Shown: piece after piece, positions 2,884 to 33,893 of the stretch | Layout: the number at the start of each line of letters is the position of its first letter | Position numbering within the stretch: the stretch's first letter is position 1 | Source: Fervidobacterium pennivorans DSM 9078 | GTDB lineage: Bacteria; Thermotogota; Thermotogae; Thermotogales; Fervidobacteriaceae | NCBI RefSeq assembly: GCF_000235405.2 | Contig: NC_017095.1 | Coordinates: 1,203,501-1,267,500, forward strand | DNA length: 64,000 bases | Direction: 5' to 3' | Made by a program: the position numbers and the translations under genes | Notes under the pieces: model-generated | Databases searched by the model: none | What the model saw: the letters and a program-made list of their open reading frames with translations, nothing else | What the model was told of the DNA's origin: nothing

Positions 2884-2908
2884 AGCCCCCGAATTCGGGG
2901 GCTAATTT
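2884..2908. terminator. Bidirectional terminator between fmdB-like gene and first csp gene
   Basis: 8-bp GC-rich stem (2884-2891 with 2896-2903, loop AATT) with T-rich sequence on both strands. Confidence 0.75.
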
Positions 2909-2924
2909 TATCCTCTACAAAGGC

Positions 2925-3125
2925 TTACTTTATAATCTTTACGTTGGCTGCCTGAGGACCTTTTGCACCGTTCTGAACATCAAACTCGACTTTGTCGCCT
3001 TCTTTGAGTGTTTTGAATCCTTCAACTTGAATAGCACTGTAGTGAACGAAGATGTCTTCTCCGTCTTCTTTTGTGATGAAACCGTAACCTTTCTTTGCAT
3101 CAAACCACTTAACTGTACCTTTCAT
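2925..3125 (-). CDS. Cold-shock protein (CspA family), copy 1
   Basis: A 66-residue single-stranded nucleic-acid-binding OB-fold protein with RNP1 (KGYGFIT) and RNP2 (DIFVHY). It is nearly identical to the second copy at 3352-3552, differing at about five residues (for example Tyr29/Phe29 and the C-terminus VKIIK versus VRLSK). CspA-type proteins melt RNA secondary structure and can act in transcription antitermination. The start is supported by AGGAGGCG about eight bases upstream. It has its own consensus promoter and a hairpin leader, and its own terminator, so the two copies are independently transcribed tandem duplicates. Confidence 0.95.
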
Positions 3126-3155
3126 GTAACAACGCCTCCTAAAATCTTATTTACT

Positions 3156-3180
3156 AACCGCCGTCCTTATTGTGGCGGTT
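3156..3180 (-). other. Leader hairpin of csp copy 1
   Basis: AACCGCC (3156-3162) pairs with GGCGGTT (3174-3180) in the 5' untranslated region, between the -10 box and the ribosome-binding site. The second csp gene has a hairpin at the same place. Confidence 0.55.
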
Positions 3181-3185
3181 GATTA

Positions 3186-3214
3186 ATTATACACCAGTAG
3201 GTTTCAAAAGTCAA
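3186..3214 (-). promoter_or_regulatory. Promoter of csp copy 1
   Basis: On the minus strand TTGACT (3214-3209), 17-base spacer and TATAAT (3191-3186). Confidence 0.85.
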
Positions 3215-3308
3215 TAGACTTCTTGGTTATGTAAAAAGAAAAAGAATAAAATCTGATAGAAGAAAACTTATCTTAATCGTTATCAACAAAATTTTCCTGT
3301 TACGAGCA

Positions 3309-3332
3309 CAAAAAAGCCCCCGTTTGGGGGCT
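3309..3332 (-). terminator. Terminator of csp copy 2
   Basis: 7-bp stem AGCCCCC/GGGGGCT (3315-3321 with 3326-3332) followed on the minus strand by a run of T. Confidence 0.75.
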
Positions 3333-3351
3333 CATTTTCATCCTCTAAAGC

Positions 3352-3552
3352 TTACTTTGAAAGCCTTACGTTGGCTGCCTGAGGACCTTTTGCACCGTTC
3401 TGAACATCAAATTCTACTTTGTCGCCTTCCTTGAGTGTTTTAAACCCATCAACCTGAATAGCGCTGAAGTGAACAAAAATGTCTTCTCCGTCTTCTTTTG
3501 TGATGAAACCGTAGCCTTTCTTTGCATCAAACCACTTAACTGTACCTTTCAT
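3352..3552 (-). CDS. Cold-shock protein (CspA family), copy 2
   Basis: A 66-residue CspA-type protein, a tandem paralogue of the gene at 2925-3125. RNP1 (KGYGFIT) and RNP2 (DIFVHF) are intact, so it should bind single-stranded RNA or DNA. The ribosome-binding site AGGAGGCG precedes the ATG at 3552. Promoter, leader hairpin, coding region and terminator are all duplicated relative to copy 1, which indicates duplication of the whole unit. Leader sequences differ more than coding sequences, so expression of the two copies may have diverged. Confidence 0.95.
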
Positions 3553-3584
3553 GCGATAACGCCTCCTAAAATCTTTCTTTCTAA

Positions 3585-3606
3585 CCGCTGTTCCATTTTT
3601 CAGCGG
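3585..3606 (-). other. Leader hairpin of csp copy 2
   Basis: CCGCTG (3585-3590) pairs with CAGCGG (3601-3606). Stem sequence differs from copy 1 but position and pairing are kept. Confidence 0.5.
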
Positions 3607-21607: not shown

Positions 21608-22927
21608 ATGAAGAAGTTTGTTTTACTTACAGCAGTTTTCGCACTTTTGCTGGTAACATTCAGCTGTACCAACTCATTAGAGCCAAGATTTGAACCACGC
21701 GCACAAGGTGAGTTTGAGGTTTCAGAGAAACTTGGCGTATCCGGAACAGAAGAAGATTACGTTCCTGGAGAATATGTTGTCCAGTTCGAGCCAAGAGAAG
21801 ATGCGGTTAAAGCATTATCAAGTGTTGGTGCAGAAGTAGTCAGAGCATATTCATTCAGCGATGTTCAAATCGTAACAGTAAGAACGGAAAAACCAGAACT
21901 TCTTAATTCTCTTCCAGGTGTCAAGTCAGTTGATAAGAACTACATTTACAGAGCACTCGCAACACCAAACGACACATACTACCGATACCAGTGGCACTAC
22001 AACAATATCAAACTGCCACAGGCATGGGATATCATGAAATCTGCTAATATCGTTGTAGCAGTTATTGATACAGGAGTTAGCTTTACACATCCAGACCTGC
22101 AAGGCATATTCGTTCAAGGCTATGACTTTGTCGATGGAGATTACGATCCGACAGACCCGGCACAGGATGTGAGCCATGGAACACATTGTATAGGAACAAT
22201 AGCCGCTGTTACAAACAACAGCCTTGGTGTTGCCGGAGTTAATTGGGGAGGATATGGAATAAAGATAATGCCTATCAGGGTTCTTGGCGCAGACGGTTCC
22301 GGAACACTCGATAATGTCGCAGCTGGTATCAGATGGGCAGTTGACAACGGTGCAAAAATAGTGAGTATGAGTCTTGGTGGTAGCGGTGCACAAGTTCTTA
22401 TGGATGCCGTTAAATATGCTTACAGCAGAAATGTAACACTTATCTGCGCAGCAGGAAATGAGAGTAGACCTTCGCTATCCTATCCAGCAGCATATGTTGA
22501 AACGATCGCAGTAGGTGCAACAAGATACGACAACACACGCGCTCGGTATTCTAACTACAATTACACAAGATACTACGATCCTTACAGAAAAGCGTATGTA
22601 TACCATTACCTTGACGTTGTTGCTCCTGGTGGAGATACAAGTGTTGACCAAAACGGTGATGGATACGCAGATGGTGTGCTCAGCACAACCTGGACACCGA
22701 CATACGGAAATACATATATGTTCTTGCAAGGTACATCGATGGCAACACCACATGTTGCAGCGCTTGCAGCTATGCTTTACGCAAAAGGTTACACAACACC
22801 AGAGGCGATTAGAAGCAGACTTATCAAAACAGCTTATAAGATTCCTGGATACACATATAATTCGAGCGGATGGAACAAATACGTTGGCTACGGTTTAATT
22901 GATGCTTACAAGGCATTGACATACTAA
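21608..22927 (+). CDS. Subtilisin-like serine protease (S8), probable lipoprotein, fervidolysin-like
   Basis: A 439-residue secreted protease. A signal peptide ends in a lipobox (VTFSC, Cys near residue 20), followed by an I9-like propeptide (about 45-115) and a subtilase domain. The catalytic triad is Asp154 (VIDTG), His190 (SHGTHC) and Ser377 (GTSMATPH), with oxyanion Asn284 (AAGNES). This resembles fervidolysin, the keratin-degrading protease of Fervidobacterium, but it is shorter and lacks the long C-terminal beta domains. The lipobox suggests tethering to the outside of the inner membrane before or instead of release. Strong promoter and terminator and a GGAGGGGG ribosome-binding site point to high expression. 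Confidence 0.92.
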   Translation: MKKFVLLTAVFALLLVTFSCTNSLEPRFEPRAQGEFEVSEKLGVSGTEEDYVPGEYVVQFEPREDAVKALSSVGAEVVRAYSFSDVQIVTVRTEKPELLNSLPGVKSVDKNYIYRALATPNDTYYRYQWHYNNIKLPQAWDIMKSANIVVAVIDTGVSFTHPDLQGIFVQGYDFVDGDYDPTDPAQDVSHGTHCIGTIAAVTNNSLGVAGVNWGGYGIKIMPIRVLGADGSGTLDNVAAGIRWAVDNGAKIVSMSLGGSGAQVLMDAVKYAYSRNVTLICAAGNESRPSLSYPAAYVETIAVGATRYDNTRARYSNYNYTRYYDPYRKAYVYHYLDVVAPGGDTSVDQNGDGYADGVLSTTWTPTYGNTYMFLQGTSMATPHVAALAAMLYAKGYTTPEAIRSRLIKTAYKIPGYTYNSSGWNKYVGYGLIDAYKALTY

Positions 22928-23300: not shown

Positions 23301-23368
23301 TCAAGACTTTATGGTATAATTGAAGTTAGCAAAATCAAGACTTTATGCTATAATTAAAGTTAGCAAAA
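23301..23368 (+). repeat. Tandem 34-bp repeat (two copies) containing a -10 box
   Basis: Copies 23301-23334 and 23335-23368 differ at two positions. Each carries a TATAAT (23315-23320 and 23349-23354); the second has TTAGCA 17 bases upstream. This looks like a duplicated promoter segment. Confidence 0.75.
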
Positions 23369-23514
23369 TAAAGCAACGTTAGAAAGACCGCTTTGTTAAG
23401 ATTTTAAAAGAGGTTTGATTTTGAGAGACATAAGTTTTCTTATATTCTTGGTAATTTCTGCACCGTATTACTACTACTCATAAATCGGGTTCTTTGTTCT
23501 AAAAACAACCTGTC

Positions 23515-23800
23515 CACAGGGCATTTTTTCTACGCACCATCGAAAGAGAGACTTGGGGAAATCAACAGGTCTTGGCTAAAGAAAATACCAATGCTTGAAA
23601 AAAATGTACGAAACTTTAGAAAGTTCCGTTGTTAGCTGGTCTTTTGAAGGACAAATTCCAGTACCATCAGGAATGTTCAGTTTGAAGAGCGCTATAAAAA
23701 CTCCAATAGGTAACATTTACAAAGCAGGAAGTGGGCTTACGCCCCTGTTGGTGTACTAACGGCTATCATTACCGGGAAGCTCGCAATGGATATAAGTTAA
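23515..23800 (+). pseudogene. Remnant of an FAD-dependent (phytoene desaturase/amine oxidase-like) oxidoreductase
   Basis: Three protein-like pieces follow each other in different frames: FFYAPSKERLGEINRSWL, then VSWSFEGQIPVPSGMFSLKS with KTPIGNIYKAGSG, then YAPVGVLTAIITGKLAMD before a TAA at 23798. Together they match the C-terminal end of phytoene-dehydrogenase-like flavoproteins (the KTP...YKAGS...GVLTAI pattern). At least two frameshifts interrupt it and the N-terminal Rossmann part is missing, so it is a pseudogene. The doubled promoter segment at 23301-23368 lies upstream and may be its old regulatory region. Confidence 0.6.
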
Positions 23801-23827
23801 CAACTTTTAGAAAAAGGGGTGAGAGAG

Positions 23828-24655
23828 ATGGTTGACATTTTCACGATTATCTTCCAAATTTTCTGGATGGTTTTGATTTTCTCGTCATTTGCACCACTTT
23901 TCAAAAACTTTTCCATTCACTCTGCACGGGAAGCTATTATACGGCAGATCGAACAAAAAAGAAAAAGCAGGGTTATAACGTTGATTCACAGACAAGAGTC
24001 GTTTAGCTTTTTCGGATTCGGGATAAGAAAGTTCATAGATATTGAAGATTCTGAAGAAGTACTCAGAGCTATTAAAATGACCCCAGATGATATGCCGATA
24101 GACTTCATTATTCACACGCCTGGTGGTCTGGTCTTGGCAGCAGAGCAGATAGCAAACGCTCTTAGAAAGCACAAAGGCAAAGTAACCGTTTTTGTACCGC
24201 ACTATGCAATGTCAGGTGGCACACTGATTGCTCTTGCTGCTGATGAAATTGTAATGGACGAAAATGCTGTCTTGGGACCCGTTGACCCGCAACTTGGACA
24301 ATATCCTGCGGCTTCAATTCTTTCGGTTGTAGAAAAAAAGAATATCAACGATATAGACGACCAGACACTGATTCTGGCAGATATCGCCCAAAAAGCAATG
24401 AAGCAGATGAAAGAATACGTGACAGAACTTCTAAAAGAAAAGTATCCAGACAAAGCTGAAAAACTTGCAGAAGACCTGGTTAGTGGAAAATGGACCCACG
24501 ATTACCCTATCACCGTGGAAAAAGCGCGAGAGCTTGGTATCAAGATATCAACAGACATGCCAAAAGAAATCTACGCGTTGATGAGTCTTTACAAAAATCC
24601 GAACTCCGGCAGACCTTCTGTTAACTACGTTCCAATTAACTATAAAGAAGACTAA
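23828..24655 (+). CDS. ClpP-fold membrane serine protease, SDH/SppA-like family
   Basis: A 275-residue protein with one N-terminal transmembrane helix (about 3-26) and a crotonase/ClpP-fold domain. The motifs are IDFIIHTPGGLVLAAEQIA, then HYAMSGGTLIALAADEI with the likely nucleophilic serine, then LGPVDPQLGQYPAASI; a lysine near GKWTHDYPI is a candidate general base, as in Ser/Lys proteases of the SppA type. This is the serine dehydrogenase proteinase (SDH) family, thought to process membrane or signal peptides. The ATG at 23828 is chosen over the GTG at 23819 because AGGGGTGA precedes it. Confidence 0.85.
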   Translation: MVDIFTIIFQIFWMVLIFSSFAPLFKNFSIHSAREAIIRQIEQKRKSRVITLIHRQESFSFFGFGIRKFIDIEDSEEVLRAIKMTPDDMPIDFIIHTPGGLVLAAEQIANALRKHKGKVTVFVPHYAMSGGTLIALAADEIVMDENAVLGPVDPQLGQYPAASILSVVEKKNINDIDDQTLILADIAQKAMKQMKEYVTELLKEKYPDKAEKLAEDLVSGKWTHDYPITVEKARELGIKISTDMPKEIYALMSLYKNPNSGRPSVNYVPINYKED

Positions 24656-24660
24656 AAACG

Positions 24661-24689
24661 AAAAAGCGGCTCGAAAGAGCCGCTTTTTT
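24661..24689. terminator. Bidirectional terminator, identical inverted copy at 32692
   Basis: 12-bp stem AAAAAGCGGCTC/GAGCCGCTTTTT with GAAA loop (24661-24672, 24677-24688). It serves the SDH gene and, on the minus strand, the large envelope protein gene. Its reverse complement recurs almost exactly at 32692-32718. Confidence 0.85.
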
Positions 24690-24715
24690 GATTTAAAAGA
24701 ATAGAAGAGTTTAGA

Positions 24716-27346
24716 TTAATAACCTTCAGTCTGTAGGCTTAGCGAAAACAAAGACAAAGGAAGACCATGTGGTGATGAATTGAGACCTATGTAAAACAAG
24801 AATTCCTGATTTTCCCCTACAGGTTTAGTCAATTCTGAGAACGGCGCAAATATACCTACAGAAGGATAAAGTTTCAATCCTTGCATGTACATTTCCACAA
24901 AGAAGTGAGTGTATATACCGTGTTGGAGTATAGTCTCGACCGATGGATTCGTAACACCGAGCGTAATTCCGCTATTTCTCAGATAAATAGCGTTCCTAAA
25001 AAGAAACGCATTATCTGTGAATAGAGTAGAGGCTATTGACATATCATAGCTTGCCTTCTCTGGCTGGTTTAAGTTGAGAGCAACTTTACCTTCAAATGTT
25101 GTAGACTTTGTAAGTGCGATATCCACTAATCCTGCGATAAAGAAATTAGACTTTATCTTCTCTGGGTCAAAGAGGTCCTCAAGCTTGTCATTGCTTAACA
25201 ACCCAAAAACCTGAACATTATATGGCATTCCAAAAGCATATGATGAAACCAAAAGTCCAAATCCAATATTGTTCAGATAAACTACTGGGACATTTGCAGT
25301 GAACAAACTAAAAACAGAATCAAACAAACCTATGTCCTTGGTCTTGAAACTAAACGTCAGATAACCGTAAACATCTGTTATTGGACTCAACGCGAACCCG
25401 CCAAGTCTGAGCATGCCGGTAAGACTGTAATCGTTCGTTGGATAGTAGTAGCTTGCAGATAGCTGGTAATTATCCTTCATCGTAAGCCAGCTCATATACT
25501 GAGAATAGGTCATATCAAACAACGTATCGGTCAGTATGAAATCAAACACTGGCGTTAAGACCAAAAACGTGTCATTTTCAATATTAGCAAATGTGAATAT
25601 AATATAACCTCTGTGTATATCGTTTTCAATATCATATTCGTAAATAGGTATCCAAGTGAGTGGTTTCGTCATTTTCTGAATTCTAAACGAAATTTCAGAA
25701 CCATACTGATATTTCTTGTCTTGGAACTTGAATACTGGTTCGTATCTGACCAAACTCACTTCTTCTTTCTGTGCCCTTATTTTATAAACCCCCGTTCCTG
25801 TGTTTACCGAGTATGGAATGTAGCTTACGTAATATAACTCGTCTTTGTCGATTACAAAATCGTATACGAGGAGATTCTCACCTAGTTTGTAAAGCTTTCC
25901 CTCGGCTAAATCGTAATAGTAAGGATTTACATACTTCCCATCTACTCTTGTAAAGAGCAAGCCATTTCCCCAAAGTCTCACATAAGGACCTTTCATGGCA
26001 TCGTCTTCTAAGACAACCGTGTTTTTAGTTACCAAGTCGTACACTATTATTTCATAATCAGAAGTAAGCATTGCCAACTTGCCATTATCTACATCCATGT
26101 AAGTAATGTATTTCTCTATGGACAGTTCCAAACCTTGCCCAGAAACTCTCGTTTTCATTTTCTTAGCATCGTATTGTGCAATATATAGATACCCATCATC
26201 TACATCAAATGCAGAAATATTGCCCTTAGCTATCAGCTTATTCGAAGTAATCTCCCAAATTTGGTTTTCATATTTTCCAAAATTTTCAGCCTTTGTGAGA
26301 ACATAAGTTTTGTCTTTATCGTATTTGATATCTAACGCAATTACTGTTTTGCTTCCTTGTTCTTTACCATCTTTACTTAAGAAAACAAGCCTTGGATTGA
26401 CACTACCAATATAAGATGTTGCTGGACCAAATTCTACACAATACACCCCTAACTTCTCACCCAAAAGGTCTAACTTATATATCTTCGCGTTTGGCGCCTT
26501 GTATATCAAATCTCCTTCCGAGTAATTCAACTTCATCAACGACCTTATCCAATCTGTGTAGAGTTCGTCAAATGGTTTACCAAAAACCTTCTCAAAAATA
26601 TCTTTGTACTTTAACCCTATTTCAACATCTGGAAGAATTGTGGACGTTAACGCTATATATCTCTTCATCTTCTCAATACCGTAAGAGTCAACCAAGTATT
26701 TATAGAAACCTGCCGTGAAGTTATAGTAAAGTTGCCCTCCTCTAAAGTCATCAGGCGGCATGATTTCCTTGTAGGTAAAAGATGGAAAGTTTTGTATGGT
26801 ATAGTAATATAACCCATCAGAAACATACGGATTGTTCAACCTTCCAGAATTCTTTGAAAACGCACTTTCAGCAAATACCGTTGTTCCTTCTCCAAATGGT
26901 CCGTTCATCTGAGGCAAATACGGAAATCCCATTAAAATACTCACAAGCTGCGTAAACTCATCTTGATATGTAAGATGCACCATATGTGTGAATTCGTGGA
27001 TAATCAAATACGTATACCAGTCCTCAAGAGGAAGTTCGAAACTTATCCAGCTTTCAGGTGGCCACATGTACAATGTTATCGTTCTGTGAAATAGAGGATT
27101 TGTAAAACCATTACTAACGGTTCCTTTGTCTTGTAAAATTATCGTGATCCTTCCAGGGTCGTTGCCAATCAGTTCAATAACCTGTTGCCTAACGTTTTCA
27201 AATATCTTACCTACAAGTTTTGCAGTCTCTTCATATCCTTCTGGAAATAAAACATCACAGTGCTCAAATTGCAAAATCCAGGAAAACATATAATTTGATA
27301 AAAACACAATCATAAAAAACAAGCCCAAGGCAATCCATCTTTTCAA
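24716..27346 (-). CDS. Large envelope protein: HExxH peptidase, propeller-like middle, beta-rich C-terminus (paralogue A)
   Basis: An 876-residue exported protein. The signal peptide (1-22) is followed by a gluzincin-like peptidase domain with HEFTH at 117-121 and a downstream glutamate in FGEGTTVFAES (Glu153 or Glu160) as the likely third zinc ligand. Residues about 280-540 form short beta repeats that look like a propeller (PSVYLSKDGKE-like and YDLVTKNTVVLEDDA motifs). The last 300 residues are strands with alternating polarity (YYYPTNDYSLTGMLRLGGF) and the protein ends in Tyr, as in outer-membrane or toga-associated barrels. A TTG start at 27346 follows GGAGG. Residues 42-457 are almost identical in DNA to paralogue B. 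Catalysis is inferred from the motif. Confidence 0.75.
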   Translation of the reverse strand: MKRWIALGLFFMIVFLSNYMFSWILQFEHCDVLFPEGYEETAKLVGKIFENVRQQVIELIGNDPGRITIILQDKGTVSNGFTNPLFHRTITLYMWPPESWISFELPLEDWYTYLIIHEFTHMVHLTYQDEFTQLVSILMGFPYLPQMNGPFGEGTTVFAESAFSKNSGRLNNPYVSDGLYYYTIQNFPSFTYKEIMPPDDFRGGQLYYNFTAGFYKYLVDSYGIEKMKRYIALTSTILPDVEIGLKYKDIFEKVFGKPFDELYTDWIRSLMKLNYSEGDLIYKAPNAKIYKLDLLGEKLGVYCVEFGPATSYIGSVNPRLVFLSKDGKEQGSKTVIALDIKYDKDKTYVLTKAENFGKYENQIWEITSNKLIAKGNISAFDVDDGYLYIAQYDAKKMKTRVSGQGLELSIEKYITYMDVDNGKLAMLTSDYEIIVYDLVTKNTVVLEDDAMKGPYVRLWGNGLLFTRVDGKYVNPYYYDLAEGKLYKLGENLLVYDFVIDKDELYYVSYIPYSVNTGTGVYKIRAQKEEVSLVRYEPVFKFQDKKYQYGSEISFRIQKMTKPLTWIPIYEYDIENDIHRGYIIFTFANIENDTFLVLTPVFDFILTDTLFDMTYSQYMSWLTMKDNYQLSASYYYPTNDYSLTGMLRLGGFALSPITDVYGYLTFSFKTKDIGLFDSVFSLFTANVPVVYLNNIGFGLLVSSYAFGMPYNVQVFGLLSNDKLEDLFDPEKIKSNFFIAGLVDIALTKSTTFEGKVALNLNQPEKASYDMSIASTLFTDNAFLFRNAIYLRNSGITLGVTNPSVETILQHGIYTHFFVEMYMQGLKLYPSVGIFAPFSELTKPVGENQEFLFYIGLNSSPHGLPLSLFSLSLQTEGY
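25976..27223 (-). repeat. Near-identical 1.25-kb block shared with 31206-32453
   Basis: The partner of the block at 31206-32453. Only about five base differences were found by eye over 1,248 bases, while flanking coding sequence is clearly diverged. Confidence 0.9.
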
Positions 27347-27690
27347 TGTTCATACCTCCGTATTTACTTAGCTTAATTTTAAAGTGTTCTACTATAAAAT
27401 TGGCTATCAAAAGTCTTTTTGCCACAAAAGATTATATCATAAACTAATGTACGCAATCAATTGTACGCAATCAATCTCAATTAACATAAACCTTCACAAA
27501 AAATCTGGTAATATCATAAAATCTAATTTGCGTTGCACAATTATTGGCTCCCAATTCCTTACAATCAAATTTTTCTATTCTACTAACTATCCTCATTCTT
27601 GTTCGCATTACCCAAAGTTCAGTTGATATAACACAAAAGTAGGTTGTGTTTATTAATCAAGCCTGTTTCAATTACTTACTCACATGTAGT
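27347..27690. other. Gene-free AT-rich stretch with a short tandem repeat
   Basis: No coding region is supported. It holds two adjacent copies of TGTACGCAATCAAT (27448-27461, 27462-27475). The 5' leader and promoter of the envelope protein at 24716-27346 must lie in its left part, but no consensus boxes stand out. Confidence 0.5.
27448..27475. repeat. Tandem 14-bp repeat
   Basis: Two exact adjacent copies of TGTACGCAATCAAT in an AT-rich gene-free stretch. Confidence 0.8.
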
Positions 27691-27691
27691 A

Positions 27692-27733
27692 CAAAAAACC
27701 TCCTTTGGGAAGAGTGAGAATTCCCAAAGGAGG
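27692..27733 (-). terminator. Terminator of the C39-like lipoprotein gene
   Basis: Perfect 13-bp stem CCTCCTTTGGGAA/TTCCCAAAGGAGG (27699-27711 with 27721-27733), followed on the minus strand by six T. Confidence 0.85.
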
Positions 27734-27772
27734 TGCGAAGACTTTGCAATTAACTTTTATAGTTATATAGAA

Positions 27773-29203
27773 TTATCTGAAATAATGGTACAAAATCAAA
27801 CCATCTCCATCATCAGTAGATGCCCACTCAAAATTATCCTTGGAATATTTTACAAATTTTCCACTTCCACCAAGGTATCCACCATATTTAACTTGGTTCC
27901 AAACACCGGCAGGGTCGTTACAAATGTAATTTGTACCATCAAAGGCTAAAACTACCATCACATGACCCGAGCGTGTATACCAACCTTGAATAATTACAGG
28001 ACCTCTTTGTAACTCCGCTCTCAAATCTGCAGCAGTACCAAGCTTTGTATACATCCTAACACTAGAACCTTTTTCTCTGGCAATTGTGTTAAATACATAA
28101 TCTAACCCTGCAGCATCGTAAACTGGTCCTCCGAACCTGCTAATAAGATAATCTGGGGTCCTTGACCAGCCACCTGTATTCACCCCTGGCTTTGTGATTC
28201 CAAAATAATCCAACATCATTGCTACAGAGGTTAAATTACACGTACTACCAGGATAGGCATAATTACTGTACTGATTATAATACGGAACGTTCGGGATTAT
28301 GCTTTGATTTTCGACATTGTCAGCATTCTTTCCTGTTCTTTCTGCTAATAATATACCTCCTTTTCTGTCGTAGACCCTTATCCTTGTGTAGATAGAACCT
28401 GGTTGATTGAAAACTATGTTGAAAGTTACCCTTTGCGATGTCTGACCACTTCCAAGTGTTACATTACCCTCGGCTACTTTCCATGAACCATAGCTTCTAT
28501 CTATGTACACTTCCACAAAATATGGTCTATTTACCTTCACGTAGTTGGTTTCGCTAAGTAATACCTCTAACTGTTCCGTTTCATTGACTCTCAACGGATA
28601 ACTTGTGTACAAAATTGAGCTTATTTGAGGTGTTGGAGAGGAAATATAATCTTCATACATTCCAATTCTTTGGACAAGCAAAGTTCCACCAGGTCTATCA
28701 TACACCTTTACCCTTGTGTACAAAGCACCTGGAGTGCTAAACCTAACCGAGAAACCAACATAGCCACCTATGGAATCTTTTGGAATTGTTATATACCCTT
28801 CCGCTATTTTGAATTCAGCGTTATTTAAAGCGGGACGAATAGCAAAAACCTCTACAAAGTAAGTTCGTGAAGTATTTGTTTGTGTGGTTTCTTCAATGAA
28901 TATTCTTACATTTTCCTGTTCGCCTACTTTTAATGGTAAAGTGGTGTATTCTATCCTTTTAATAGCAGGAACTGGTAAAGAAGCCAAAACTGACTTATCC
29001 GAAGTTAATTCCATTTCGGTTAAACAGTTTTCTGCGACCTCTTTAATATCTATATCTTGTTTTGTAGTTAGGTCAAAACTTACAACTTCTTCTCCATGTT
29101 CATCTGAAGTTTCTAACGCACTCTTCGTACAACCGGTAAGAACGAAAAACACCAAAACAACCGTTATGAAAAAAATCGAGAGCACAAGTTTTCGACCTTT
29201 CAT
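27773..29203 (-). CDS. Lipoprotein with two Ig-like repeats and a C39/papain-like peptidase domain
   Basis: A 476-residue lipoprotein (ATG at 29203; 29206 also possible). The signal peptide ends with lipobox LTGC. Two repeats of about 100 residues each follow, recognisable by IEYTTLPLKVGE with YTRVKVYDRPGGTLL, and ILYTSYPLRVNE with YTRIRVYDRKGGILL. The C-terminal 150 residues form a papain-fold domain like peptidase C39: VPYYNQYSN, the likely nucleophile Cys in GSTCNLTSVAMMLDYFG, the catalytic His in GHVMVVLAFDG, and NDPAG. It lies between two envelope metallopeptidase paralogues on the same strand. Substrate unknown; peptidase or amidase activity is possible. Confidence 0.8.
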   Translation of the reverse strand: MKGRKLVLSIFFITVVLVFFVLTGCTKSALETSDEHGEEVVSFDLTTKQDIDIKEVAENCLTEMELTSDKSVLASLPVPAIKRIEYTTLPLKVGEQENVRIFIEETTQTNTSRTYFVEVFAIRPALNNAEFKIAEGYITIPKDSIGGYVGFSVRFSTPGALYTRVKVYDRPGGTLLVQRIGMYEDYISSPTPQISSILYTSYPLRVNETEQLEVLLSETNYVKVNRPYFVEVYIDRSYGSWKVAEGNVTLGSGQTSQRVTFNIVFNQPGSIYTRIRVYDRKGGILLAERTGKNADNVENQSIIPNVPYYNQYSNYAYPGSTCNLTSVAMMLDYFGITKPGVNTGGWSRTPDYLISRFGGPVYDAAGLDYVFNTIAREKGSSVRMYTKLGTAADLRAELQRGPVIIQGWYTRSGHVMVVLAFDGTNYICNDPAGVWNQVKYGGYLGGSGKFVKYSKDNFEWASTDDGDGLILYHYFR

Positions 29204-29349
29204 CATATCAACCTCCCTTGTTCAAAGGCGTTTTTAAAATGAACAGATTAAAAAGCGCTTTCCGAAAAATTATTAATAACACCTGTTAGCTCACAGTTAA
29301 AATCTACCGCTTCTCAGTACGTATGATCAATCAAGTTAGCTTGCACTTC

Positions 29350-29448
29350 TTATTGTGGCTCGTAAACCACTTTTTGTGTACAGGCCGTAGAAATCAAAGA
29401 AACTAATACCGCTGCCAGCAAAATAACATAGATAAGAACTTTCTTCAT
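29350..29448 (-). CDS. Small 32-residue lipoprotein
   Basis: This ORF is below the usual length cut-off. It encodes 32 residues with a basic start (MKKVLIY), a hydrophobic core and a lipobox STAC near residue 23, leaving only about ten residues after the lipidated cysteine. AAGGTGGG lies at the right distance before the ATG at 29448, and a candidate promoter (TTGGTT, 17 bases, TATATT) is about 55-85 bases further upstream on the minus strand. The combination of ribosome-binding site, signal and stop position makes it a credible gene, perhaps a lysis- or entericidin-like lipopeptide. Function unknown. Confidence 0.55.
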   Translation of the reverse strand: MKKVLIYVILLAAVLVSLISTACTQKVVYEPQ

Positions 29449-29834
29449 GCTTCCCACCTTCAACTATGAGAAGTTAGCACCATTACTCTGAATATACCGC
29501 AGGAAACAGAATAAACCAATATTATCTTTTCGGTAACGTTACCAATCAATTTTTCCAACAAAAGTATGAAACAATTTACATGAATTATTATATTAATAAA
29601 AACAGGACTTAGAAAAGAAAAAGAATAAAATTTCTATAAAACTATCTTGTATGAGCTTTTAATACGAAAATCTTATTTAGCTGTAAGTTATTGAAATTTA
29701 TTCGCACCATCGCTCTTAGAGAACTTTGAACCGAAGTTTTTGGACACTGGAGCTGCCATTATTGCGTGTTCCAAAGTGTTGTTTACTCTGTTTGACCATT
29801 CGGAACTCATAACAACTTTTGTCCCTTCATAGTC
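29449..29834 (-). other. Gene-free stretch with a coding relic
   Basis: Between the small lipoprotein and the terminator at 29835 no intact gene is visible. On the minus strand 29688-29834 stays open for 48 codons and reads like the C-terminus of a protein (GTKVVMSSEWSNRVNNTLEH, stop at 29688), without any usable start outside the hairpin region. It is best treated as a relic of an unidentified gene. Confidence 0.35.
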
Positions 29835-29887
29835 AAAAAAACCCCCGTTGATGGTTTTACTATACCATTTCGGGGGTGTTTTTTTGG
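29835..29887. terminator. Terminator after envelope paralogue B
   Basis: Long hairpin with outer stem ACCCCCG/CGGGGGT and inner ATGGT/ACCAT, flanked by A7 and T7, so it can work in both directions. Confidence 0.8.
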
Positions 29888-29948
29888 TCCACGTTTTAGT
29901 CTAGTATGAAACACTTTTTCTAATAATAAGAAATCAAGTTGGTTGCTT

Positions 29949-32573
29949 TTATTCTACAGTAGTACCAAAAATCATTTGGGGTAATCCATGTGGTGATGTA
30001 TTTATTCCTATGTAAAACAAATATTTAAGCGTATTATCTTCACTAAATAACTCACTAAACGGTACAAATAAACCAACTGACGGATAAACTTTTAGACCTT
30101 GCACGTAACTTTCAACAAATAAATGTCCATAAATCCCATGTAAAATCGTCCCAGTATTACCATCTAAAACAAGCGGATTGGCAACACCAAGAGTTAACCC
30201 ACTATTTCGCACTAAAATCATGTTTCCAAATAAGAATGCATTATCTGTAAAGAGTGTTTTTGCTATCGAAACATCGTATGAAGCTAAGTCGAGTGAGTCA
30301 ACTTTTATTGTTGTTTGTGCTTCAAACGTAGTATCTCTCCCAAGTGCCATACCTAAGTAACAATATGTAAAAAGATTGGAAAGCAATTTATCAGTACTGA
30401 ACAACTCTTGGATTTTATCATTGCTCAAAAGCATGAAAACTTGTGCTTTATAAGGTATTTCAAATAAGTACGATGTAGCCAAAACCCCTGCCCCTATGTT
30501 ATTCTTATAGACCCCTGGAACACTTAAGCCAAACAGGTTAAATGCTGAATCAAGAAGTCCTATGTCTTTACTTTTGAAGCCAAAAGTAAAATATCCGTAC
30601 AAATCAGTTATTGGGCTCAAACTAAATCCGCCAATCTTCAGCATTCCACTGAGATTGTAATCGCTCGTTGGATAATAATAGCTTACTAATAGTTCGTACG
30701 TGTCTTTCATTGTAAACCAACTTACATACTGAGAGTATGTTAAATTAAAATCAGTGTCTGTAAGCTTCAAATCAAATATCGGCGTAACTATCAAAAATGT
30801 ATCATTTTCGATATTCCCAAATGTGAATATCATATATCCTCTGTGCTCGTCGCTGTCAATATTGTATTCATACATGGGTATCCAAGTAAGAGGTTTTATC
30901 ATCTTTTCGATTCTAAACGATAATTCAGAACCGGACTTAAACTCTTTATCGATAAATTCATACTTGTACTCGTATTTTACTAAGTTACTTTCTGTTTTTA
31001 CAATTTTAGATTTGTAAACACCTGTTCCCGTATTGAGTGAGTATGGTATATAACTCACATAGTAAATATCTTCACCTTCAATTGCGAAATCATATACTAA
31101 CATGTCTTCACCAAGTTTGTAAAGTCTCATCTCAGTTAAATCGTAGTAGTAAGGATTTACATATTTTCCGTCCACTCTTGTAAACAGCAAGCCATTTCCC
31201 CAAAATCTCACATAAGGACCTTTCATGGCATCGTCTTCTAAGACAACCGTGTTTTTAGTTACCAAGTCGTACACTATTATTTCATAATCAGAAGTAAGCA
31301 TTGCCAACTTGCCATTATTTACATCCATGTAAGCAACGTATTTCTCTATGGACAGTTCCAAACCTTGCCCAGAAACTCTCGTTTTCATTTTCTTAGCATC
31401 GTATTGTGCAATATATAGATACCCATCATCTACATCAAATGCAGAAATATTGCCCTTAGCTATCAGCTTATTCGAAGTAATCTCCCAAATTTGGTTTTCA
31501 TATTTTCCAAAATTTTCAGCCTTTGTGAGAACATAAGTTTTGTCTTTATCGTATTTGATATCTAACGCAATTACTGTTTTGCTTCCTTGTTCTTTACCAT
31601 CTTTACTTAAGAAAACAAGCCTTGGATTGACACTACCAATATAAGATGTTGCTGGACCAAATTCTACACAATACACCCCTAACTTCTCACCCAAAAGGTC
31701 TAACTTATATATCTTCGCGTTTGGCGCCTTGTATATCAAATCTCCTTCCGAGTAATTCAACTTCATCAACGACCTTATCCAATCTGTGTAGAGTTCGTCA
31801 AATGGTTTACCAAAAACCTTCTCAAAAATATCTCTGTACTTTAACCCTATTTCAACATCTGGAAGAATTGTGGACGTTAACGCTATATATCTCTTCATCT
31901 TCTCAATACCGTAAGAGTCAACCAAGTATTTATAGAACCCTGCCGTGAAGTTATAGTAAAGTTGCCCTCCTCTAAAGTCATCAGGCGGCATGATTTCCTT
32001 GTAGGTAAAAGATGGAAAGTTTTGTATGGTATAGTAATATAACCCATCAGAAACATACGGATTGTTCAACCTTCCAGAATTCTTTGAAAACGCACTTTCA
32101 GCAAATACCGTTGTTCCTTCTCCAAATGGTCCGTTCATCTGAGGCAAATACGGAAATCCCATTAAAATACTCACAAGCTGCGTAAACTCATCTTGATATG
32201 TAAGATGCACCATATGTGTGAATTCGTGGATAATCAAATACGTATACCAGTCCTCAAGAGGAAGTTCGAAACTTATCCAGCTTTCAGGTGGCCACATGTA
32301 CAATGTTATCGTTCTGTGAAATAGAGGATTTGTAAAACCATTACTAACGGTTCCTTTGTCTTGTAAAATTATCGTGATCCTTCCAGGGTCGTTGCCAATC
32401 AGTTCAATAACCTGTTGCCTAACGTTTTCAAATATCTTACCTACAAGTTTTGCGTTTTCCTCGTATCCTTCTGGATAAACTATGTCGGCGTGTTCAAAGT
32501 GGAGAACTCCAGACAAAGCAACAGCAGAAACAAATGTCAAGAAAAATGCCAAAACCAAAAAGCTCTTTTTCAC
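29949..32573 (-). CDS. Large envelope protein: HExxH peptidase, propeller-like middle, beta-rich C-terminus (paralogue B)
   Basis: An 874-residue paralogue of the protein at 24716-27346. The GTG at 32573 is chosen because GGGGGTGAAG precedes it and it produces a clean signal peptide (KKSFLVLAFFLTFVSAVA); the in-frame ATG at 32627 would put 18 extra residues before it. The HEFTH zinc motif and downstream FGEG are kept. DNA 31206-32453 is nearly identical to 25976-27223 in paralogue A (about five differences by eye), while both the signal region and the C-terminal beta-rich 400 residues have diverged. It is likely an envelope metalloprotease or surface protein; activity is inferred. Confidence 0.75.
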   Translation of the reverse strand: MKKSFLVLAFFLTFVSAVALSGVLHFEHADIVYPEGYEENAKLVGKIFENVRQQVIELIGNDPGRITIILQDKGTVSNGFTNPLFHRTITLYMWPPESWISFELPLEDWYTYLIIHEFTHMVHLTYQDEFTQLVSILMGFPYLPQMNGPFGEGTTVFAESAFSKNSGRLNNPYVSDGLYYYTIQNFPSFTYKEIMPPDDFRGGQLYYNFTAGFYKYLVDSYGIEKMKRYIALTSTILPDVEIGLKYRDIFEKVFGKPFDELYTDWIRSLMKLNYSEGDLIYKAPNAKIYKLDLLGEKLGVYCVEFGPATSYIGSVNPRLVFLSKDGKEQGSKTVIALDIKYDKDKTYVLTKAENFGKYENQIWEITSNKLIAKGNISAFDVDDGYLYIAQYDAKKMKTRVSGQGLELSIEKYVAYMDVNNGKLAMLTSDYEIIVYDLVTKNTVVLEDDAMKGPYVRFWGNGLLFTRVDGKYVNPYYYDLTEMRLYKLGEDMLVYDFAIEGEDIYYVSYIPYSLNTGTGVYKSKIVKTESNLVKYEYKYEFIDKEFKSGSELSFRIEKMIKPLTWIPMYEYNIDSDEHRGYMIFTFGNIENDTFLIVTPIFDLKLTDTDFNLTYSQYVSWFTMKDTYELLVSYYYPTSDYNLSGMLKIGGFSLSPITDLYGYFTFGFKSKDIGLLDSAFNLFGLSVPGVYKNNIGAGVLATSYLFEIPYKAQVFMLLSNDKIQELFSTDKLLSNLFTYCYLGMALGRDTTFEAQTTIKVDSLDLASYDVSIAKTLFTDNAFLFGNMILVRNSGLTLGVANPLVLDGNTGTILHGIYGHLFVESYVQGLKVYPSVGLFVPFSELFSEDNTLKYLFYIGINTSPHGLPQMIFGTTVE
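31206..32453 (-). repeat. Near-identical 1.25-kb block shared with 25976-27223
   Basis: Aligned with a constant offset of 5230 bases, the two blocks differ at only about five positions, with sharp falls in identity at both ends. The block codes for the peptidase and first propeller-like part of both paralogues. Confidence 0.9.
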
Positions 32574-32691
32574 AAGCTTCACCCCCAATATATATAAACC
32601 ATATTTCATATTTTCCTCCATAAACATTTTATCACATTATCATTTTTCTGCATCTGGCCAAAGTAAACAACAAGTGATACATAGAAACAAC

Positions 32692-32718
32692 AAAAAAGCG
32701 GCTCTTTCGAGCCGCTTT
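32692..32718 (-). terminator. Terminator of the rplK-rplA operon
   Basis: 10-bp stem AAAGCGGCTC/GAGCCGCTTT (32695-32704 with 32709-32718) with six T on the minus strand. It repeats, in inverted orientation, the terminator at 24661-24689. Confidence 0.85.
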
Positions 32719-32736
32719 CGTTTGCTATTTTTACTA

Positions 32737-33444
32737 TTATTTCCTACCCTCTGCAAGAGTGTTGAGATCAAGTTTTATTCCAGGTCCCATTGTGGAAGCA
32801 ATAACTGCTTTCTTTATAAAGTTACCCTTCACACCTGCCGGTCTGAGAGCAAGAATCTGTTCGTAAGCAGATTTTATGTTTTCTTTGAGTTTTTCTGAGT
32901 CAAATGAAGCTTTTCCAACTGGTATGTGTATATTTCCTGTCTTATCTGTTCTAACCTCGACTTTACCCTTTTTGAACTCAGAGACCGCAGATGCAACATC
33001 ATCTGTAACTGTTCCTGTTTTTGGATTCGGCATTAATCCTCTTGGACCAAGGACCTTACCGAGCTTACCAATAACCTTCATCATATCTGGAGTTGCGATT
33101 GCAACATCGAAATCAAAGAATCCTTCGTTAGCAATTTTGTCAGCAAGTTCTTCTGCTCCAACGTAATCTGCACCTGCTTGTTTTGCTTCCTCTGCCTTGT
33201 CTCCCTTTGCAAAAACCAAAACTCTTACAGTCTTACCTGTTCCGTGTGGAAGGCTAATTGTACTTCTTATATTCTGCTCACTTTTTCTGTAGTCAATGTT
33301 CGTCTTTACGTGAAGTTCCACCGTTTCATCGAACTTTGCCGTCGCTGTCTTTTTTACAAGCTCTACTGCTTCGTCAAGTGGATAAGATTTTTCTCTATCT
33401 ACGAGTTTTCTTACTTCATTGTACCTCTTGGAGTGTTTAGGCAT
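32737..33444 (-). CDS. rplA: 50S ribosomal protein L1
   Basis: A 235-residue L1 with the standard opening [16 protein letters not shown], the central [17 protein letters not shown] and a C-terminal [21 protein letters not shown]1 binds 23S rRNA at the stalk that releases tRNA, and in many bacteria represses its own operon. It follows rplK by 23 bases. Unusually, the operon ends here: a strong terminator follows and the next gene is an envelope protein, whereas rplJ-rplL-rpoB-rpoC normally come next. Confidence 0.97.
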
Positions 33445-33467
33445 GTGTGAGCCTCCTCCTTTCCGCT

Positions 33468-33893
33468 TCAGTCTACAACTTCCAGACCCATGCTGCGAGC
33501 TGTTCCTTCGATTATTCTCATCGCAGCTTCAATGTCGTTTGCATTGAGGTCTGGCATCTTGAGTTCAGCAATTTCTCTGATTTGTTGCCTTGTCACTTTT
33601 CCAACAATCTTCCTCTTCGGTTCCGGCGAACCTGAGTTGATTTTCGCTGCCCTCTTCAGTAAGAAGCTGGCAGGAGGAGTCTTCGTGACGAACGTAAATG
33701 ACCTGTCATCGTAAACAGTAACGATGACTGGTATTAGCAATCCAGCCTTATCAGCCGTGACTGCGTTGAACTTCTTACAGAATTCCATCAAGTTAACTCC
33801 TCTTTGACCCAATGCAGGACCTACTGGAGGAGCTGGCGTTGCTTTTCCGGCTTCGAGCACAAGCCTAACCTGTGCTACTACTTTCTTTGCCAT
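33468..33893 (-). CDS. rplK: 50S ribosomal protein L11
   Basis: A 141-residue L11 with the family hallmarks [40 protein letters not shown] and the C-terminal rRNA-binding domain with [14 protein letters not shown]. It forms the GTPase-associated centre with 23S rRNA. It is located between nusG and rplA in the usual secE-nusG-rplK-rplA order and shares a transcript with them. The ribosome-binding site is GGGAGGT. Confidence 0.97.

What the first reader, a model, noticed from the sequence alone, without database searches (positions are those of the whole stretch)
25976..32453. Recent gene conversion between two large envelope metallopeptidase-like paralogues
Two 874-876-residue exported proteins share a 1.25-kb DNA block (25976-27223 and 31206-32453) with only about five differences, while the sequence before it (signal peptide) and after it (C-terminal beta-rich half) differs far more. 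Sharp borders at both ends argue for conversion or a partial recombination event, not a recent whole-gene duplication. It would keep the peptidase/propeller part uniform while letting the C-terminal surface part vary, like a constant module joined to variable surface parts.
Basis: seen in the sequence. Interest (0 to 1): 0.75.

Follow-up and report, generated by a model that had tools for sequence, protein, structure and literature searches.

The report
Recombination insertion made two chimeric peptidases
In this Fervidobacterium genome a 5.2-kb piece of apparently foreign DNA recombined into a single-copy envelope peptidase-like gene and turned it into two reciprocal hybrids sharing a near-identical 1.25-kb middle, so the twin genes most likely come from one insertion event and not from gene conversion between two long-standing paralogues.

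Summary
Blocks 25976-27223 and 31206-32453 differ at 5 of 1248 bases (99.6%), while the flanking parts of the two genes are about 56% (5' end) and 65% (3' half) identical.

The interpretation changes once relatives are compared. The family is single-copy in every other Fervidobacterium genome that has it. In the nearest relative (G003) one gene sits between the same neighbours, an SDH-type protease gene and rplA. Against it, the 5' end of gene B and the 3' half of gene A are native (91% and 89% nt). The 5' end of A, the 3' half of B and everything between (a C39-type lipoprotein gene found in none of 102 other Thermotogota genomes, plus an IS-end relic) look foreign. The block is native in both copies (89% to G003).

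So A and B are reciprocal chimeras. Most likely a segment carrying a species-level-divergent homologue and the C39 gene integrated by homologous recombination (ends-in or Campbell-type), duplicating the native block. The old-paralogue alternative needs a conversion plus losses in at least G003 and G002.

No evidence was found for a recurrent constant/variable surface system. This is a clear, recent event of a known kind. Mechanistic details and function remain inferred.

The parts
24716..27346 (-). Gene A: chimera with foreign 5' end, native block and native tail (876 aa, HEFTH motif intact)
   Evidence: ORF; segment-by-segment identity to G003; trees
24716..25975 (-). Native tail of A (3' half)
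   Evidence: 89.3% nt to G003; sister to G003 in tree with 100/100 support
25976..27223 (-). Block, copy in A
   Evidence: 99.6% to copy in B, 88.8% to G003
27224..27346 (-). Foreign 5' end of A (signal-peptide region); GGAGGT and TTG start
   Evidence: about 59% nt to G003 and 56% to B; native only from about 27232 inward
27347..27772 (.). Foreign spacer, with a terminator-like hairpin for the C39 gene (27699-27712, minus strand)
   Evidence: no substantial match in other Fervidobacterium genomes; terminator scan
27773..29206 (-). Cargo gene: 477-aa lipoprotein-like protein with C-terminal Peptidase_C39_2 domain
   Evidence: Pfam 40.7 bits against cut-off 24; no relative in 102 other Thermotogota genomes
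29207..29948 (.). Foreign spacer
   Evidence: only short repeats match elsewhere
29814..29905 (-). Relic of the left end of an IS (hairpin plus first codons of OrfA)
   Evidence: 81-84% to three other places in the genome, two of them left ends of intact-looking IS copies with OrfA/OrfB
29949..31205 (-). Foreign tail of B (3' half)
   Evidence: 66.3% nt to G003, 65.5% to tail A; A+B clade rejected, p-AU 3.6e-39
31206..32453 (-). Block, copy in B
   Evidence: 99.6% to copy in A, 88.7% to G003
32454..32627 (-). Native 5' end of B, with native upstream region toward rplA
   Evidence: 91% nt to G003 in the signal-peptide bin; intergenic region alignable with G003

Best explanation
The ancestor had one gene here (native 5' end, block, tail) between an SDH-type protease gene and rplA. 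A DNA segment carrying a divergent Fervidobacterium-type homologue together with a C39-type lipoprotein gene recombined into it by homology. In the incoming molecule the homologue's 3' half lay on one side of the C39 gene and its 5' end on the other, as in a circle or a tandem repeat. The two ends joined the native gene at points 1.25 kb apart, so the native stretch between them now stands on both sides of the insert. The geometry is that of ends-in (gap-repair) or Campbell-type integration, or of transformation-driven merodiploid formation. The products are B (native promoter, signal peptide and block, foreign tail) and A (foreign upstream region and signal peptide, native block and tail). 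Shown: single-copy state in relatives, reciprocal chimerism, native origin of both blocks, cargo gene unique in the phylum sample. Inferred: the direction (insertion here, not deletion elsewhere), one-step duplication of the block, transformation as the route, and expression of both chimeras.
For: One gene between the same neighbours in G003, net excess about 5.2 kb equal to the repeat spacing. Segment identities to G003: 5' end of B 91%, block 89% in both, tail of A 89%; foreign parts 53-66%. Where A and B differ G003 sides with B at 43:6 sites in the 5' end and with A at 340:54 in the tail, p 3e-26. Conflicting, well-supported trees for block and tail. No other genome searched has two full copies. 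C39 gene absent from 102 other Thermotogota genomes. The five block differences split 2 in A and 3 in B relative to G003, as expected for later mutation. ComEC and DprA families present.
Against: No donor with the foreign 5' end and tail in one gene was found. The tail of B cannot be placed firmly relative to G002 and the G003/A group (p-AU 0.16-0.28), so an old duplication in the lineage is not excluded by the tree. The 5' segment is too short for strong tree support. A small cluster of sites near 27224-27230, where G003 sides with A, shows the 5' border is not perfectly simple. Competence of Fervidobacterium itself was not tested.
Confidence: 0.75

Rival explanations
1. Old tandem paralogues: a pair around the C39 gene existed in an ancestor, the block was recently converted in this genome, and G003's single gene is a fusion left by deletion between the paralogues (B's 5' end, A's tail).
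For: A deletion between direct repeats would give exactly the G003 structure; tail B is as old as the split from G002.
Against: Needs conversion here plus loss in G003 and separately in G002, both single at the locus, and loss of the C39 gene everywhere else. No relic seen at the G003 locus, where both flanks align directly.
Confidence: 0.15
2. Two-step or mosaic-donor version: a simple single crossover integrated the segment, and the block was homogenised afterwards by conversion, or the donor was a conspecific strain whose gene already had this block between a different 5' end and tail.
For: Gives the same final structure; strains of one species are close enough for 99.6% identity (97.4% ANI between strain T and DSM 9078, PMC9861569).
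Against: Needs one more event or an unseen mosaic donor. This is a variant of the best explanation and cannot be separated from it with the data here.
Confidence: 0.3
3. Assembly artefact from a repeated block.
For: Long near-identical repeats can be misassembled; reads were not available.
Against: Copies differ at five sites, the insert holds 2.6 kb of unique sequence plus a unique tail, the genome is one contig and both outer flanks match G003.
Confidence: 0.02

Closest known systems
Ends-in (double-strand gap repair) and Campbell-type insertion-duplication (own knowledge)
   Same: Insert flanked by direct repeats of the target gene; each flanking copy a reciprocal recombinant; gap repair leaves native sequence in both copies
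   Different: A natural event with no vector; donor form (circle, tandem or linear) unknown
Merodiploid formation by natural transformation in Streptococcus pneumoniae (PMC3784515)
   Same: Recombination of a donor fragment through alternative pairing yields a duplication of recipient DNA
   Different: There the duplications are about 100-900 kb and arise through chromosomal repeats; here 1.25 kb of one gene is duplicated around foreign DNA, and transformation is only inferred
Gene conversion between paralogues
   Same: A near-identical tract between otherwise diverged genes
   Different: Relatives have a single gene, and the native ends belong to different copies

Membership tests
Insertion-duplication by homologous recombination | Single uninterrupted homologue at the same locus in a relative | tested here: met
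   G003 (L012) has one gene between SDH-type protease and rplA
Insertion-duplication by homologous recombination | Flanking copies are reciprocal recombinants of native and foreign sequence | tested here: met
Insertion-duplication by homologous recombination | Donor molecule with the foreign tail and 5' end in one gene | tested here: inconclusive
   No donor in genus, order, viral contigs or the genome collection; metagenomes could not be scanned
Gene conversion between resident paralogues | Two full paralogues present before the event, seen in relatives | tested here: not met
   Only one copy in every other Fervidobacterium genome with a match; close strains T and GSH not held
Recurrent constant/variable surface-antigen system | Several alternative tails or cassettes in the genome or population | tested here: not met
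   Two copies only in this genome, one elsewhere; population data not available
Exported HExxH metallopeptidase | HExxH zinc motif in the shared block | tested here: met
   HEFTH invariant in 8 homologues
Exported HExxH metallopeptidase | Significant match to a named peptidase family or solved structure | tested here: not met
   YgjP-like 13.8 bits against cut-off 26; no NCBIfam or PDB match
Peptidase_C39_2 (cargo gene) | Profile score over curated cut-off | tested here: met
   40.7 bits against 24

The most novel reading that the evidence does not exclude
Fervidobacterium strains repeatedly exchange the signal peptide and C-terminal half of this envelope peptidase-like protein by recombination through its conserved block, with accessory secreted-protease cargo riding along, making the locus a recombination-driven diversification site in a thermophile.
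Probability: 0.07. Interest if true: 0.6.

Novelty: new member of a known kind. Interest (0 to 1): 0.38.

Why it matters
It is a cleanly bounded natural example, in a thermophile, of how one homologous insertion can import a cargo gene and at the same time make two intact chimeric genes from a single-copy gene. It also shows that a near-identical block between paralogues need not mean conversion between residents: the single-copy state in a relative reverses the reading.

Tried and rejected
Whole-gene duplication: rejected by saturated synonymous divergence outside the block. Conversion between residents: see rivals. Transposon-borne insertion: no transposase in the insert, only an IS-end relic, and the borders lie inside conserved coding sequence. 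RNA feature: no Rfam match at E up to 0.5 in 24600-33500. Viral or plasmid donor: two viral-contig scans found no relative; plasmid and phage tblastn gave only about 30% C39-domain matches in cyanobacterial plasmids and phages. Structure: the AlphaFold model of A from a 5-sequence alignment has mean pLDDT 41.9, too poor for a fold search; it only suggests that the part after about residue 290 is mostly beta. The first genome-contig scan found nothing; the second gave two Fervidobacterium bins, one Thermotogota bin and a weak partial match in Bacteriovorax.

Full report
What is there. The window lies in a single-contig genome of 2,166,381 bp. That length fits Fervidobacterium pennivorans DSM 9078 (identification from memory; no tool named it). 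Two genes on the minus strand, A (24716-27346) and B (29949-32627), share a block of 1248 bp with five differences. Outside it they are about 56% identical (5' end) and 65% identical (3' half) at the DNA level.

Relatives change the reading. The protein family occurs once in each other Fervidobacterium genome with a match, and once (in two genomes as two partial matches) elsewhere in the order; only this genome has two full copies. In the nearest relative, G003, the single gene lies between orthologues of the same SDH-type protease gene (97% aa) and rplA (97% aa). DNA comparison shows the window matching that locus twice: 23604-27281 at 89% and 29980-33500 at 81%. The net excess is about 5.2 kb, the same as the 5230-bp spacing of the repeats.

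Reciprocal chimeras. Codon alignment with G003 shows that the 5' end of B is native (91% nt in the signal-peptide bin) and the 5' end of A is not (53%). The tail of A is native (89%), the tail of B is not (66%), and the block is native in both (88.8 and 88.7%). Where A and B differ, G003 agrees with B at 43 of 49 informative sites in the 5' end and with A at 340 of 394 in the tail (Fisher p 3e-26). Trees of the segments conflict as expected. For the tail, A+G003 has full support and A+B is rejected (p-AU 3.6e-39). For the block, A+B has full support, and A+G003 and B+G003 are rejected (p 0.006 and 0.002). For the 5' end, B groups with G003, but the segment is too short for strong support. Tail B is about as far from the native tail as the gene of another species, G002 (64% aa), and its placement relative to G002 is unresolved. 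Its G+C (33.9%) is lower than tail A's (38.0%), though within the range of the genus.

The insert. Between tail B and the 5' end of A lie a 742-bp spacer, a lipoprotein-like gene with a Peptidase_C39_2 domain (27773-29206) and a 426-bp spacer. The C39 gene has no relative at E up to 0.001 in any of the 102 other Thermotogota genomes searched. The spacer next to tail B holds about 90 bp matching the left end of IS copies found elsewhere in this genome (hairpin plus the first codons of OrfA). No transposase or integrase was seen in the insert.

Mechanism. One insertion through the ancestral gene, with the native block left on both sides, explains all segments. An incoming molecule in which the homologue's tail and 5' end flank the C39 gene, as in a circle or a tandem donor, joins the native gene at two points 1.25 kb apart. 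If the donor's own block is lost (a gap, or crossovers at the two borders), both copies start identical and native. The five differences then read as later mutations, two in A and three in B by comparison with G003. The borders lie in conserved coding stretches, as expected for homology-driven exchange. Merodiploid formation by transformation in pneumococcus is a precedent for alternative pairing on sister chromatids (PMC3784515). ComEC and DprA families occur in this genome, and natural transformation is reported for Thermotoga sp. RQ7 (PMC4029938). The route is inferred, not shown. A single crossover followed by conversion, or a mosaic conspecific donor, gives the same product and cannot be separated here.

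Alternatives. An old tandem pair with conversion in this genome and a fusion-deletion in G003 would produce the same G003 gene. It needs more events, including a loss in G002, and loss of the C39 gene everywhere else. It remains possible (about 0.15). The confidence values overlap on purpose: the two-step or mosaic-donor version is a variant inside the best explanation.

Function. The shared block carries an invariant HEFTH motif and a beta-rich part. No Pfam, NCBIfam or PDB relative reaches significance, and the structure model is poor (mean pLDDT 41.9). 'Exported metallopeptidase-like' is fair as a description and untested as a function. B keeps the native upstream region; A has a GGAGGT plus TTG start and would have to be expressed from the imported spacer. 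Both frames are intact.

Verdict. This is a real, well-bounded recombination event of a known kind, re-read as insertion with reciprocal chimerism. It is not evidence for a surface-variation system.

Noticed in passing
window 23305-23818: G003 and G002 carry about 7 kb of genes here (glycosyltransferase, acyltransferase, Rieske oxygenase, SDR, amine oxidase-like; an IS240-type transposase in G003) next to the SDH-type protease gene; the window has lost them, leaving a 78-bp relic (85%) of the amine oxidase-like gene at about 23513-23590.
   Followed up: partly
window 29388-29449: A 32-codon lipoprotein-like reading frame (MKKVLIYVILLAAVLVSLISTACTQKVVYEPQ) on the minus strand in the foreign spacer, perhaps the truncated start of another lipoprotein gene.
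   Followed up: no
window 24660-24690 and 32695-32719: The same terminator hairpin (AAAGCGGCTC...GAGCCGCTTT) stands at both outer ends of the locus, also in G003, so the region is bounded by near-identical terminators.
   Followed up: no
window 2908-3591: Two tandem cold-shock-protein-like genes on the minus strand give an 89% direct repeat with 427-bp spacing (identity of the genes read from sequence).
   Followed up: no
window 21608-22927: Subtilase with a fervidolysin-type prodomain beside the locus, with other peptidase genes (C39, SDH-type) within 8 kb.
   Followed up: no
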